IMG/VR virus record: IMGVR_UViG_3300045911_000060
Span: 1-52,442 of that record
Reading direction: 5' to 3' (one strand)
From: a virus
Length of the DNA: 52,442 bases
Under the pieces are notes generated by a model that worked only from the letters and a program-made list of their open reading frames with translations, searched no databases and had not been told where the DNA came from. The position numbers were made by a program, and so were the translations under genes. Positions 592 through 25,566 of the stretch are shown piece after piece. Numbering within the stretch: position 1 is the stretch's first letter; each line of letters starts with the position of its first letter.

Positions 592-1791
592 ATGGCTGGC
601 ATCACGATTCAATTTCGGCGCGGGACGACTGCGAACCACAGCGCCTTCACTGGCGCGGCGGGCGAAATCACTGTTGACACGACAAAGTGGACTTTGGTGC
701 TCCACGACAATTCGACAGTGGGCGGGTTCGCCATGTCCAAGGAAGGACATACACATACCATCGCCAACATCACTGATATCCACTATCAGACGTTGCGCCG
801 GGCCGGTACACCCTTCACTCAGCGTTCCCGGATCAATTTCTCTTCCGGGTTCTCTCTGACGGACGATTCCGGCAATGACCAGACGACGGTGGATCTGAAC
901 GATTCTGGCGTCACTGGTGCCACGTATGGCAGCGGCACGACGGTCGCACAGGTACAGGTGTCTTCGAAGGGCATCATCACTTCCGCGTCCAGCGTTGCGA
1001 TTGACGTGACGGCTCTTCTGCCGACAGCGACGGGCAATGCTGGTAAGTTCCTATCCACAGATGGATCGACGGGCCGGTCGTGGGATCACCCGGTTACCGC
1101 CCCGGCGTATGCTAGCGCACCGGCCCCGGCGACTGGCAATACTGGTCGTGTGGTATTGCCGGGTACCGGTTTCGGTTTGCGCCGTTCGACGGGTTCGGTC
1201 TATGAAGCGTTTGGTCCGCTGGTGAAGTTTGAGACGCCGAACTTTGGTTCCTTCTCATGGATCAACCAAGGCGGATCAGCGGTATCATCCAGTTCGCTTG
1301 GTGGTGTGTTTATTGACACCGTGGCGGCGGAAGCATCAGAGAACCTTCGACTGATGCAAGCGTCTCTCAGCGCGGCCCCGTGGAAGATCACAGCGGCCTT
1401 CTATCCGTATCTCAATGGTTCCACCCCGGCAGAGTGTGGCATCTTCCTTCGGAACAGCACAGACAGCAAGATCGTGACCTACGGTGCGTCGTTTGGTTCA
1501 AGCACGTGGTTGCGCGCGGTCGGTACCAAATGGACCAATGAAACGACGGTTGATTCCACGTACTTCACGACTTCGTATGGACTGGTCGCTCAGCCGGTTT
1601 GGTTCCAGATCCAAGACGACGGTGCGGATCGGATCTTCCGTATCTCTATGAACGGCGTGCATTGGCACGATGTCAACAGCGTTGTCAACAGCGACTTCTT
1701 GAGTTCCCGGAGCCAGTATGGTTTCTATGTTTCTTCGCGGGCCGGTACGACGCGGGCGGCGATGGCGTTGATGAGCCTGATCGTCGAATAG
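592..1791 (+). CDS. tail fibre / adhesin-like structural protein
   Basis: 399 aa, rich in Gly, Ser and Thr with few charged stretches, as in phage fibres. The first ~65 residues (RRGTT, then HSAFTGAAGEITVDT, LHDNSTVGGF, GHTH) form an N-terminal module common in phage tail fibres. The same module begins the minus-strand protein at 46566-48212, including a shared 'TDD..GN.TTVDL' segment near residue 90. The C-terminal half may be a receptor-binding domain. A GGAG site overlaps the end of the preceding gene. Confidence 0.65.
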   Translation: MAGITIQFRRGTTANHSAFTGAAGEITVDTTKWTLVLHDNSTVGGFAMSKEGHTHTIANITDIHYQTLRRAGTPFTQRSRINFSSGFSLTDDSGNDQTTVDLNDSGVTGATYGSGTTVAQVQVSSKGIITSASSVAIDVTALLPTATGNAGKFLSTDGSTGRSWDHPVTAPAYASAPAPATGNTGRVVLPGTGFGLRRSTGSVYEAFGPLVKFETPNFGSFSWINQGGSAVSSSSLGGVFIDTVAAEASENLRLMQASLSAAPWKITAAFYPYLNGSTPAECGIFLRNSTDSKIVTYGASFGSSTWLRAVGTKWTNETTVDSTYFTTSYGLVAQPVWFQIQDDGADRIFRISMNGVHWHDVNSVVNSDFLSSRSQYGFYVSSRAGTTRAAMALMSLIVE

Positions 1792-19760: not shown

Positions 19761-20104
19761 TGTACGAAGTCAGTCTGATCGAACGCCCCGACCATAAGGT
19801 CTGGATTCCAGCCGGGCAGTTCGATCCAGAAAAACACGTCAAGCACGCGGAACGAAACATCACCGCTGATGACATGCTGGATTGGATTGATGGTGATTGG
19901 CCGTCCATCGAAACCGATGCGACCGGCACAACCGTCGCCCGGCTGGAACCGGGGCAAGGCGCGAACAACATGTTCCGGGGAAGGAATGTGCGGGAAGCCT
20001 TGGCGAAGGCCATGATGACGCCGCCGTTCGGTGGCCCGACTCCACAGCAGTTTGATGCGATGAATGACGAAGAACAGCTTGCGTCAAACTCTGTGGTGTG
20101 CTAA
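19760..20104 (+). CDS. hypothetical protein, 114 aa
   Basis: Start in a TGATG overlap. Acidic, mainly helical C-terminal half ('EALAKAMMTPPFGGPTPQQ'). The promoter of the tmRNA gene lies inside the last codons of this gene. Function unknown. Confidence 0.55.
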   Translation: MYEVSLIERPDHKVWIPAGQFDPEKHVKHAERNITADDMLDWIDGDWPSIETDATGTTVARLEPGQGANNMFRGRNVREALAKAMMTPPFGGPTPQQFDAMNDEEQLASNSVVC

Positions 20105-20107
20105 ATT
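20079..20107 (+). promoter_or_regulatory. sigma70-like promoter of the tmRNA gene
   Basis: TTGCGT (20079-20084), 17-nt spacer and TAAATT (20102-20107). Transcription would start near 20114, just before the acceptor piece. Confidence 0.6.
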
Positions 20108-20175
20108 AGAGTTGTTCGCGTTGATCTGGTGTAGACCACGTTCGGACGCCGGTTCAATTCCGGCCACCTCCACCA

Positions 20176-20204
20176 AAACACGCTCCCGCAAGGGGGCACC
20201 ATAC
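20176..20204 (+). other. ssrA: intervening segment of permuted tmRNA
   Basis: 29 nt between the encoded CCA of the acceptor piece and the 5' end of the coding piece. In permuted tmRNAs this linker is processed away to leave two RNA pieces. Confidence 0.75.
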
Positions 20205-20320
20205 GGGGGTGTCAGGTTTCGACGGGCGGCGGAAAGCTAAAGGGAGCGGGCCGGTAGACGACTACCGAAGCCGATGAAGTTTTATGAGCGGATTCGGACC
20301 AACAGCGTAAAACAATAACT

Positions 20321-20353
20321 GCCAACAGCAATGTTCTGGCGATGGCTGCTTAA
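20321..20353 (+). other. ssrA: tmRNA proteolysis-tag reading frame
   Basis: Read from GCC to TAA the tag is ANSNVLAMAA. The Ala-rich ending matches the C-terminal degron recognised by ClpX-type unfoldases. The bases before it (AACAATAACT) resemble the usual upstream resume signal. Confidence 0.75.
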
Positions 20354-20408
20354 TTGCACCCATCCGGGGAATTGAAGGTGCCCTGTTAAAGAAAGACCTT
20401 CGCAAGAT

Positions 20409-20436
20409 CGCCGGACTTTCGGGTCCGGCGTTTTTG
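20409..20436 (+). terminator. intrinsic terminator of tmRNA
   Basis: CGCCGGAC (20409-20416) and GTCCGGCG (20423-20430), 6-nt loop, then five T. Confidence 0.9.
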
Positions 20437-20466
20437 TTTCCCACCGAACTTTTCCACAGGTACCTC

Positions 20467-20495
20467 TTGACATATAGGTCCAGAACTTCTATACT
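20467..20495 (+). promoter_or_regulatory. sigma70-like promoter, leaderless
   Basis: TTGACA in TTGACATATAGGT, 17-nt spacer, TATACT, and six bases to ATG 20502. Same spacing as the promoter at 14. Confidence 0.8.
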
Positions 20496-23416: not shown

Positions 23417-23493
23417 GGGCCGTTAGCTCATTTTGGGAGAGCATCCGCCTTGCAAGCGGAAGGTAGCCGGTTCGATCCCGGCACGGTCCACCA
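23417..23493 (+). tRNA. tRNA-Ala(UGC)
   Basis: Acceptor GGGCCGU/ACGGUCC with the G3-U70 alanine determinant and CCA encoded. The anticodon loop is CUUGCAA (anticodon UGC), and the T arm is GCCGG-UUCGAUC-CCGGC. All arms are canonical. Confidence 0.92.
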
Positions 23494-23500
23494 AACAAAT

Positions 23501-23580
23501 GGGGCACGGGGCTGCATGGGGTGGCCGCTTCGATGGCATCGAAGATATTCAGGTGGGTTCGATTCCCACGTGTTCCACCA
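23501..23580 (+). tRNA. tRNA-Ala(GGC)
   Basis: Acceptor GGGGCAC/GUGUUCC with G3-U70, anticodon stem CUUCG/CGAAG around AUGGCAU (anticodon GGC), T stem GUGGG/CCCAC, CCA encoded. The variable region is 8 nt, longer than usual. Confidence 0.8.
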
Positions 23581-23692
23581 AACAGAGACGGGCGATTACA
23601 AGTTTCTTGTGTCGTGCGATTGCAAGTTTTCTCTGTCTTTGTTCTTTGAAAATCGAATAGTTTTTGCGGAAGGAATCTCGGTTCACTAAAAC
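23581..23692 (+). other. 112-bp gap between tRNA genes
   Basis: No gene seen. Contains an imperfect direct repeat GCGATTRCAAGTTT at about 23592 and 23617. Probably a processing spacer. Confidence 0.4.
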
Positions 23693-23773
23693 GGGGCACG
23701 GGACTGCATGGGGGTGGTCGCCTCATTCGCAATGAGGATATTCAGGTGGGTTCGATTCCCACGTGTTCCACCA
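23693..23773 (+). tRNA. tRNA-Ala(CGC)
   Basis: Near-duplicate of the tRNA at 23501 in acceptor, variable and T arms, but with anticodon stem CCUCA/UGAGG around UUCGCAA (anticodon CGC). G3-U70 and encoded CCA are present. The variable region is again 8 nt. Confidence 0.8.
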
Positions 23774-23786
23774 AGATTCCATGACA

Positions 23787-23960
23787 CGAAGCCGAAGTAT
23801 AAGTACTTCTTGACAGGGCCGTTCAAAGCCGAAGTCGGAAGATTATCTGGTTACAACAGATGGCCGGGCTTACTAAGTTCGGTCTTCCCCGTGTTATGGG
23901 GAATGCTTCGTTACCGGGCAACCGGGCGACCGTCAGACCTGTACGGTGACATTTGACAGG
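23787..23960 (+). ncRNA. structured RNA segment, unassigned
   Basis: No coding frame fits, but base-paired elements follow one another: GAAGTA-TAAG-TACTTC (23793-23808). GGAAGA/TCTTCC encloses ATCTG-GTTACAA-CAGAT and an 8-bp hairpin CCGGGCTT-ACT-AAGTTCGG. Next come TCCCC-GTGTTAT-GGGGA and ACCGT/ACGGT. Two loops are 7 nt with U33-like placement, like anticodon arms. Possibly decayed tRNA genes or a multi-hairpin RNA. Confidence 0.35.
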
Positions 23961-24069
23961 CACTTTGATGCTTCTGATGAGTTGGATTCTTGCTTTGAAC
24001 GGCTCTTTCTTCGTGTCATACTGAATTCAGGACAAGCCGCCTCAGATTGGTTATCTGTCCCCACCTTTC

Positions 24070-24147
24070 GGAGATGTAGCTTAACATGGTTAAAGCGCCG
24101 GGCCGCAAAGCCCGGAGAAGTTGGTTCGAGTCCAATTCTTAGTCGAT
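24070..24147 (+). tRNA. degenerate tRNA-like gene (Cys-like)
   Basis: Good D arm (GCTT/AAGC), T arm (GTTGG-TTCGAGT-CCAAT) and anticodon stem CCGGG/CCCGG. The anticodon loop is 8 nt (CCGCAAAG, GCA by normal numbering, no U33) and the acceptor strands GGAGATG and TCTTAGT barely pair. No CCA follows. Likely a pseudo-tRNA, or one needing end repair or editing. Confidence 0.45.
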
Positions 24148-24175
24148 CTGTACTCTCTTGCTTGTCCATAATTTT

Positions 24176-24295
24176 CGCTGGCCGGTGCCGACTTTCTGGC
24201 TTAAGAAAGAGCACCTTCCTCCAAAGTCGGTAGTCGTGGGGCGAACGGTTAACGTCGATGTTTCCCACTGTCAGTCGGAGCGACATCGGCCAGCG
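24176..24295 (+). ncRNA. cloverleaf-like structured RNA, unassigned
   Basis: A closing stem of 12 pairs (24176-24187 with 24284-24295, one G-U) encloses an 8-bp hairpin (24188-24195 with 24223-24230) and a GTGGG/CCCAC stem (24236-24240 with 24264-24268) with an inner ACG/CGT stem. It carries no tRNA consensus loops and no frame. The layout suggests a stable ~120-nt RNA. Confidence 0.45.
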
Positions 24296-24315
24296 TGCAT
24301 TCCTTCCGCAAGTTC

Positions 24316-24389
24316 GGGGCATTTCGTTAGTGGCAAACGGCACCACTGTCTATGGTGTACCACGGGTTCGATTCCCGTATGCCCCGCCA
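24316..24389 (+). tRNA. tRNA-Asp(GUC), first copy
   Basis: Perfect acceptor GGGGCAU/AUGCCCC, G73, encoded CCA, D stem CGUU/AACG, anticodon stem CACCA/UGGUG with loop CUGUCUA (GUC; unusual U37), T stem ACGGG/CCCGU. Confidence 0.82.
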
Positions 24390-24390
24390 C

Positions 24391-24468
24391 GGTCTTGTAG
24401 GGGAGTTGGCCGTCCCCGTCACCCTGTCACGGTGAAGATCACGGGTTCGAATCCCGTCAGGACCGCCA
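24391..24468 (+). tRNA. tRNA-Asp(GUC), second copy
   Basis: Acceptor GGUCUUG/CAGGACC, G73 and CCA; D stem GGGG/CCCC; anticodon loop CUGUCAC (GUC) in stem UCACC/GGUGA; T arm ACGGG-UUCGAAU-CCCGU. Fully canonical. Confidence 0.9.
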
Positions 24469-24504
24469 AGTTTGACGTTCACGTTTGTGGATGTCAGACC
24501 CGTT

Positions 24505-24606
24505 GGGGAGATAGCCTAGCTTGGTTAAGGCACCGTTGCATGCCTTTTGCTGGCAACAGCCGTTTTGTGATGGTTATCATTGGTTCGAATCCAATTCTCC
24601 CCTCCA
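24505..24606 (+). tRNA. tRNA-like gene with a 31-nt anticodon loop
   Basis: Acceptor GGGGAGA/UCUCCCC with encoded CCA, D arm GCCU/AGGC, 5-nt variable region and T arm AUUGG-UUCGAAU-CCAAU are all canonical. The anticodon stem CCGUU/GAUGG (24533-24537, 24569-24573) encloses 31 nt instead of 7. CCGTT recurs at 24560, giving a 27-nt direct-repeat spacing. Removing 24 nt at the 5' side of the loop would leave UUU (Lys) as anticodon; this is inference. Confidence 0.6.
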
Positions 24607-24610
24607 ACAT

Positions 24611-24686
24611 GCCGGTGTAGTTTAAGTGGCAAAATAGTGGTTTCGTACTCCACAGTCACGACTTCAATCTGTCGTCACCGGCTCCA
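24611..24686 (+). tRNA. tRNA-Thr(CGU)
   Basis: Perfect acceptor GCCGGUG/CACCGGC, encoded CCA. Anticodon stem GUGG/CCAC with a U-U mismatch at its base and loop UUCGUAC (anticodon CGU). The T stem ACGAC/GUCGU closes an 8-nt loop, one more than normal. Confidence 0.7.
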
Positions 24687-24696
24687 AACACAACAC

Positions 24697-24772
24697 GCCG
24701 AATAAGCATTGATGGCGATGCGCTGGTCTTGTAAATCAGAGAAGAGGGTTCAACTTCCCTCATTCGGCTCCA
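24697..24772 (+). tRNA. tRNA-Thr(UGU)
   Basis: Perfect acceptor GCCGAAU/AUUCGGC, D stem GCAU/AUGC, anticodon stem CUGGU/AUCAG with loop CUUGUAA (UGU), CCA encoded. The T stem GAGGG/CCCUC has an 8-nt loop, as in the adjacent tRNA-Thr. Confidence 0.82.
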
Positions 24773-24774
24773 AC

Positions 24775-24865
24775 GGGCCTGTAGCTTAGAGTGCCGGGGA
24801 CGCCCGGACGGTCAGAGCACTTCAGGTTGAAGAAGGCGCGGGTTCGATCCCCGCCAGTCCCGCCA
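24775..24865 (+). tRNA. aberrant tRNA: 3-nt anticodon loop, long D loop
   Basis: Acceptor GGGCCUG/CAGUCCC (one mismatch), encoded CCA and canonical T arm GCGGG-UUCGAUC-CCCGC. The D stem GCUU/GAGC closes a 27-nt loop containing CCGGG-GACG-CCCGG. The anticodon stem CUUCA/UGAAG has only GGU as loop. Isotype cannot be assigned. Probably non-decoding. Confidence 0.55.
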
Positions 24866-25566
24866 TGCACCTGTCTTCTAACTGGTCAGGAACCGCGATT
24901 GGTATTCGCGAAATATGGGTTCGAGTCCCATCGGGTGCTCCATTCTTTTGATGATATCGTTGACGACGAATTGCGCGACCTTTTCCTTTATTGAGCGCTC
25001 CAAATGTCGGAGTGACACTATGACAGTTCGGGCAGATGAGTTCAAGGTTCTCTTCCTTGTTGTTCAGCGGGTCGCCGTCAATATGATTGACTTGTAACGG
25101 TACCCGTTGTGTGACAGGATTGATTTGACACCATCCGCACTTCCAACACGCCAGGCCTTTCTTCTCGAACAGGTATCGGCGGATAGTTTTGACTGATCGA
25201 CATACCGCCGCCTTTGATACCATCTTCCAATCCATTCTTCCACCGTTGAATGAATTCATTGTACAGATGATTTTTGTGGCAGCGACCAGAACAGAATTCA
25301 TTCGTTCCCTTTTTGACATCTTTGCCGCACACAATGCACGTGGGTGTTTTGTCTGCCCGTCGCACGTTATTGTATCTGGCCGCGCACGATTGATTGCAGA
25401 ACTTCTTTTTTCTGGTTTCCGCAACGCGACCGCCTTCTGGTACATGAATCACTTCATCACAATGAAGGCAACGGTTGGGTGACTCATTGTATGATGTGAT
25501 TGCTTGTTGACGAAAACGATGTGCTGTGATGGCGGCACCTAGCCGCCCCGCTTGGGATCTGGTCAC
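24822..25566 (-). pseudogene. HNH endonuclease, frameshifted
   Basis: The N-terminal frame starts at GTG 25566 and holds two zinc pairs (CLHC, FCNQSC; CIVC, FCSGRC) up to 'RWKNGLEDGIKGGG'. A second frame, out of register by one base near 25207, continues 'RSVKTIRRYLFEKKGLACWKCGW...VNHIDGDPLNNKEENLELICPNCH', the HNH core. The homologous order elsewhere is one protein, so an indel broke it. The second frame runs on antisense through the last two tRNA genes (24822-24941), so its normal end is also missing. Confidence 0.7.
24867..24942 (+). tRNA. tRNA-Thr(GGU)
   Basis: Acceptor GCACCUG/CGGGUGC, encoded CCA, anticodon stem CGCGA/UCGCG with loop UUGGUAU (GGU), T arm AUGGG-UUCGAGU-CCCAU. With the two other Thr tRNAs it completes a three-anticodon Thr set. 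Confidence 0.85.

What the first reader, a model, noticed from the sequence alone, without database searches (positions are those of the whole stretch)
20102..20436. Phage-encoded circularly permuted two-piece tmRNA
The acceptor piece (T arm, CACCTCC-ACCA) precedes the GGGGGTG...TTTCGACGGG coding piece, and their ends form a 7-bp acceptor with G3-U70. This is the permuted form known from some bacterial lineages; in a phage it is unusual. It has its own promoter and terminator. The predicted tag is ANSNVLAMAA.
Basis: partly seen in the sequence, partly recalled or inferred. Interest (0 to 1): 0.85.

Follow-up and report, generated by a model that had tools for sequence, protein, structure and literature searches.

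The report
Phage-borne two-piece (permuted) tmRNA gene
A T4-like phage carries its own complete gene for a two-piece ribosome-rescue RNA (tmRNA) with a private degradation tag; this is real and intact, but phages with this gene form were already known and turn out to be common.

Summary
ARAGORN calls a permuted tmRNA at 20083-20444. Rfam's tmRNA_permuted model matches 20114-20353 at 108.6 bits (cut-off 47), while the standard-order model finds only sub-threshold pieces (33.9 bits). The 7-bp acceptor stem with G3-U70, T arm, encoded CCA, 29-nt excised segment and tag ANSNVLAMAA are all present. Two large relatives (about 83% DNA identity nearby) keep the gene with the identical tag; their tRNA-like halves have diverged, yet the proposed stems re-pair, with five two-sided changes. 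No smpB was found, so it must use host SmpB. The nearest subtype is betaproteobacterial (81 bits against 40-44 for alpha and cyanobacterial). "Own promoter" is not shown: the strong promoter lies downstream. Verdict: a new member of a known kind. A side finding may be newer: in distant relatives an HNH endonuclease gene sits inside the excised segment of a permuted tmRNA.

The parts
20079..20107 (+). candidate weak promoter: TTGCGT, 17 nt, TAAATT with TGC in front (overlaps the stop codon of the upstream ORF)
   Evidence: read by eye; does not pass the consensus scan; block 20079-20113 is 94% identical in a relative against an 83% background; the beta_tmRNA model aligns its promoter region here without gaps
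20114..20175 (+). acceptor piece of the tmRNA (5' end inferred from model start)
   Evidence: RF04321 alignment
20114..20119 (+). 5' strand of outer P2 helix (pairs with 20246-20251)
   Evidence: 6/6 pairs in both variants, three one-sided compatible changes
20139..20144 (+). 5' strand of inner P2 helix (pairs with 20223-20228)
   Evidence: 6/6 pairs here, 5/6 in the relative, three two-sided changes
20148..20164 (+). T arm, 5-bp stem with UUCAAUU loop
   Evidence: RF04321 alignment; one pair flipped C-G to G-C in the relative
20165..20175 (+). 3' acceptor strand CACCUCC plus encoded ACCA
   Evidence: sequence; pairs with 20205-20211; one two-sided change in the relative
20176..20204 (+). 29-nt intervening segment, expected to be excised; GCUCCC-GCAA-GGGGGC hairpin
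   Evidence: RF04321 alignment; hairpin keeps a GNRA loop (GAAA) and pairing in the relative
20205..20211 (+). 5' acceptor strand GGGGGUG with G3-U70 to U20169
   Evidence: sequence
20205..20437 (+). coding (mRNA-like) piece with tag frame and terminator (3' end inferred)
   Evidence: ARAGORN and RF01850 span
20252..20313 (+). hairpin CGGUAG-ACGA-CUACCG and a possible pseudoknot upstream of the resume codon (CCGA 20271-20274 with UCGG 20294-20297; GUUUUAU 20279-20285 with GUAAAAC 20307-20313)
   Evidence: hairpin in folds; pseudoknot by eye only, no variation there to test it
20321..20353 (+). tag frame GCC...TAA, ANSNVLAMAA*
   Evidence: ARAGORN; 100% identical DNA 20309-20353 in relatives
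20409..20437 (+). intrinsic terminator
   Evidence: kept in relative

Best explanation
This is an intact, probably functional, phage-encoded tmRNA gene of the circularly permuted form. One transcript is made. Host tRNA-processing enzymes (RNase P at G20205, 3' trimming at the encoded CCA) remove the 29-nt segment and leave two RNAs, held together by the 7-bp acceptor stem and the P2 helices. Host AlaRS charges the CCA end using G3-U70, and host SmpB and EF-Tu deliver it to stalled ribosomes. The ribosome then resumes at GCC 20321, adds ANSNVLAMAA and stops at UAA, so the stalled protein is released and tagged for proteolysis. Shown: gene form, paired structure, conserved tag, absence of smpB from the contigs searched. 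Inferred: transcription, cleavage, charging, tagging. Most likely benefit (inferred): keeping ribosomes free during a lytic infection in which mRNA is degraded.
For: RF04321 at 108.6 bits against cut-off 47; ARAGORN permuted call with tag. Same gene and same tag in G001, G002, G003 and G005. Between window and L252, 24 proposed pairs: 24 and 23 form, 5 change on both sides, 4 on one side; slid controls pair 36-54%. The tag region is 45/45 identical and the rest of the coding piece beyond P2 90-93%, against an 83% background. The T4-like backbone (gp32, PhoH, RNA ligase, tail tube, DNA end protector) places it in a large tailed phage, not stray host DNA. The same class exists in cultured phages.
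Against: No expression data. Only two distinct variants inform the covariation, and shuffles reach the observed values in 19 of 500, so that test alone is modest. No strong promoter found upstream. Host unknown, so compatibility with its SmpB and AlaRS is untested. The record is a 52-kb fragment, so an smpB elsewhere in this phage is not excluded, though none was found in 224- and 184-kb relatives.
Confidence: 0.85

Rival explanations
1. The RNA is intact but acts against the host: it competes with the host tmRNA and diverts trans-translation with a phage tag that host adaptors or proteases handle differently, to alter protein turnover during infection.
For: The tag ANSNVLAMAA departs from the usual betaproteobacterial ANDxxFALAA tags and is invariant within the lineage. 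A tag-less phage DS6A tmRNA inhibits endogenous tmRNA in E. coli (as reported in PMC11915505). The Melnitz authors also proposed host-protein degradation.
Against: The tag ends in AA like working tags; a bacterial permuted tmRNA found here also ends in MAA (ANDENFAMAA). Nothing shows altered proteolysis.
Confidence: 0.12
2. A captured host ssrA remnant (imprecise excision or contamination) without function.
For: ssrA is a common integration site, and tmRNA fragments occur in prophages (PMC9004378).
Against: Complete gene in a T4-like backbone. The best bacterial matches cover only the acceptor/T-arm part, never the coding piece. Stem pairing is kept while sequence changes. Kept at the same place in independent contigs.
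Confidence: 0.02
3. A standard one-piece tmRNA or a chance arrangement misread as permuted.
For: None beyond 33.9- and 17.6-bit pieces of the standard model.
Against: Permuted model 108.6 bits; the two acceptor strands lie in the permuted order and pair 7/7.
Confidence: 0.01

Closest known systems
Rfam RF04321 tmRNA_permuted
   Same: gene order, acceptor and T arm, D-loop GGUUUCGAC, P2, resume region and tag; 108.6 bits over the full model
   Different: carries about 34 extra nt between the first hairpin and the resume codon relative to the older beta model; distinct tag
Betaproteobacterial permuted tmRNA (RF01850), e.g. Propionivibrio (L260)
   Same: best of the three older subtype models, 81.0 bits over the full model including promoter and terminator regions; alpha 39.8, cyano 43.8
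   Different: below the curated 84 bits; bacterial members score 160-296. The phage encodes CCA where L259 and L260 read CCT; tag ANSNVLAMAA instead of ANDERFALAA
[quoted passage not shown]
   Same: permuted tmRNA in a T4-like marine myophage; Mosig matches RF04321 at 93.6 bits
   Different: those are described as alphaproteobacterial in type, with a glutamine riboswitch; tag differs (ARAGORN gives GEDNFALAA for Mosig); the present one is beta-like

Membership tests
circularly permuted (two-piece) tmRNA | acceptor/T-arm piece encoded upstream of the mRNA-like piece | tested here: met
   RF04321 full-length match, 108.6 bits; ARAGORN permuted call
circularly permuted (two-piece) tmRNA | acceptor stem formed between the two pieces, with G3-U70 for alanine | tested here: met
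   7/7 pairs incl. G20207-U20169; two-sided change A-U to G-C in relative
circularly permuted (two-piece) tmRNA | tag reading frame with Ala resume codon, Ala-Ala end and stop | tested here: met
   ANSNVLAMAA*, invariant in relatives
circularly permuted (two-piece) tmRNA | intervening segment removed so that the mature RNA is two molecules | not testable with these tools
   needs RNA from infected cells
betaproteobacterial subtype (RF01850) | score at or above the curated cut-off (84 bits) | tested here: not met
   81.0 bits; nearest subtype, but not filed as a member
complete trans-translation system | SmpB partner encoded alongside | tested here: not met
   no SmpB (PF01668) in window or four relatives, while 10 of 14 control genomes ring; must come from the host

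The most novel reading that the evidence does not exclude
Permuted tmRNA genes of T4-like phages are modular RNA genes. In this lineage the tRNA-like half diversifies (62-65% identity against an 83% background) while the tag half is frozen, as if refitted to different hosts' SmpB or AlaRS. In distant relatives the excised segment has become a safe harbour for a mobile HNH endonuclease gene, tolerated without any self-splicing intron.
Probability: 0.35. Interest if true: 0.6.

Novelty: new member of a known kind. Interest (0 to 1): 0.3.

Why it matters
It adds a beta-like, well-conserved example to the phage permuted tmRNAs and shows that the gene is under selection in a T4-like lineage that lacks smpB in the sequence held. 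It gives a clean test of why phages carry tmRNA: the same tag with two different tRNA-like halves. The side finding, an HNH gene inside the excised segment of permuted tmRNAs, would be a new niche for homing genes if confirmed.

Tried and rejected
Standard-order tmRNA rejected. Host-gene capture by recent excision: the phage tmRNA against 399 genomes of the Propionivibrio order matches only the acceptor/T-arm part, best in one-piece tmRNAs; rejected as a recent capture, host left open. Near DNA search in isolate phages: no match. Distant search finds mainly the T-arm region. A simple fold of the whole region is only mildly stable (z -1.87), and single-sequence folding or cofolding of the pieces did not recover all the proposed helices, so energies were not used as evidence. 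'Own promoter' by consensus scan: none upstream. A T4-type late promoter (CTAAATA occurs 10 times against 1.3 expected) for the tmRNA was considered; it has only CTAAATTA, so left open. Alpha and cyanobacterial subtypes considered and ranked below beta.

Full report
Check of the observation. ARAGORN calls a permuted tmRNA at 20083-20444 with tag ANSNVLAMAA. cmscan gives RF04321 tmRNA_permuted at 20114-20353, 108.6 bits, cut-off 47, E 2.5e-20. The standard model RF00023 gives only pieces of 33.9 and 17.6 bits, below its cut-off. Read directly: T arm 20148-20164, CACCUCC 20165-20171, ACCA 20172-20175, intervening segment 20176-20204, GGGGGUG 20205-20211, tag 20321-20353, terminator 20409-20437.

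Promoter. The scan finds one sigma-70 type site, TTGACA-17-TATACT, at 20467-20495. It lies behind the terminator, in front of a small ORF at about 20502, so it is not the tmRNA's. Upstream of the tmRNA there is only a weak candidate at 20079-20107, in a block 33/35 identical in the relative. The beta_tmRNA model, which includes the promoter region, aligns there without gaps. The terminator claim stands.

Genome context. The window is a 52,442-base virus record. Its proteins include a gp32-type single-strand binding protein, PhoH, T4-type RNA ligase, helicase loader, tail tube, DNA end protector and a large protein with tape-measure and endolysin-like domains. It is a T4-like myophage fragment. 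There is also a cluster of about ten tRNAs. No SmpB was found here or in four relatives, including 224- and 184-kb records.

Relatives and selection. Close relatives were found by gp32. Four of five carry the gene, two of them on large contigs with about 83% identity nearby. All have the identical tag. Segment identities, window against L252: upstream coding 0.83; promoter block 0.94; acceptor-piece P2/T region 0.62-0.65; excised segment with acceptor strand 0.93; D-loop/P2 part of the coding piece 0.63; next part 0.90; resume and tag 1.00; downstream to terminator 0.93. The two low segments are the two strands of the tRNA-like domain and P2. Across 24 proposed pairs, 24 form in the window and 23 in L252; five change on both sides and four on one; sliding the partners leaves 36-54% paired. 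With only two distinct variants, shuffles reach the observed values in 19 of 500, so this is good but not overwhelming evidence.

Subtype and source. The old subtype models rank beta 81.0 bits (cut-off 84), cyano 43.8, alpha 39.8. In 200 genomes of the Propionivibrio order only seven exceed the beta cut-off, at 160-296 bits. The phage gene is thus a distant beta-like relative, not a recent capture. Two bacterial hits to a tight pattern are a Propionivibrio and an unnamed proteobacterium, both with ANDERFA(L/I)AA tags and CCT where the phage encodes CCA. DNA searches against 399 genomes of the order match almost only the acceptor/T-arm part. The host is unknown.

How common. Buchholz et al. 2022 (PMC9004378) report 53 two-piece among 133 unique phage tmRNAs, 50 of the 53 from marine or aquatic phages. 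The 2025 database lists 79 bacteriophage tmRNAs of all forms (PMC11915505). Some of those contigs may be proviral or host DNA. Mosig, a cultured phage, gives 93.6 bits. So the kind is known and common.

Side finding. In a 218-kb distant relative (PhoH 47%), the permuted tmRNA (104.6 bits, L361:1501-2049) has an intervening segment of about 360 nt containing a 101-aa HNH endonuclease ORF (phrog_2255, E 1.5e-22; no Pfam match), enclosed by the inverted ends AAAGTAAATTAAA/TTTAATTTACTTT. L380, another phage, has the same arrangement; in the DNA held, the two share similarity only across L380:8739-9130 (the 3' part of the acceptor piece, the excised segment with the HNH gene, and the start of the coding piece) and not in the flanks or the rest of the coding piece. 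Both tag frames are intact by eye (ANTNAAPVAYALAA, ANTNAKPEALALAA). The 2025 survey reports a repeat and a tRNA-Ala in permuted intervening sequences and homing genes only in group I introns; I found no earlier report in the papers searched. This suggests horizontal movement of an HNH gene into the excised segment.

Mechanism. Transcription as one precursor, excision of the segment by host tRNA-processing enzymes, alanine charging through G3-U70, delivery with host SmpB, tagging and release. These steps follow from what is established for two-piece tmRNAs; here only the gene anatomy and its conservation are shown. The likely use, ribosome rescue during infection, is inference.

Noticed in passing
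L361:1501-2049 (-), L378, L380:8739-9130: Permuted tmRNA genes with a 101-aa HNH endonuclease ORF inside the excised intervening segment; the block is shared (91-100% DNA) between two phages whose flanks and tmRNA coding pieces are unalike, suggesting a mobile gene in the excised segment. ARAGORN misses the L361 one.
   Followed up: partly
window 24069-24144: tRNA-Cys-like gene with an enlarged (8-nt) anticodon loop, read by ARAGORN as four-base anticodon gcaa; the relative has a 7-nt loop with gca at the same place. Possible frameshift tRNA or decay.
   Followed up: partly
window 24505-24603: 99-nt tRNA-like gene found by Rfam (45.2 bits) but not by ARAGORN; the fold suggests a very large anticodon loop.
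   Followed up: no
window 23417-24942: Clustered tRNAs in like-with-like groups (three Ala, two Asp, three Thr with different anticodons), kept in the relatives in nearly the same order.
   Followed up: no
window, 10 sites such as 20640, 25594, 29810, 21929(-), 49205(-): CTAAATA occurs 10 times against 1.3 expected, several 10-20 nt before start codons: probable T4-type late promoters.
   Followed up: partly
window 20467-20495: Strong consensus sigma-70 promoter TTGACA-17-TATACT behind the tmRNA terminator, in front of a small membrane-like ORF (MSTNYFFLFLF...) at about 20502; conserved in the relative.
   Followed up: no
window 592-1791: Protein with a major tropism determinant (Mtd) N-terminal domain (PF18454); whether a diversity-generating retroelement accompanies it was not checked.
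   Followed up: no
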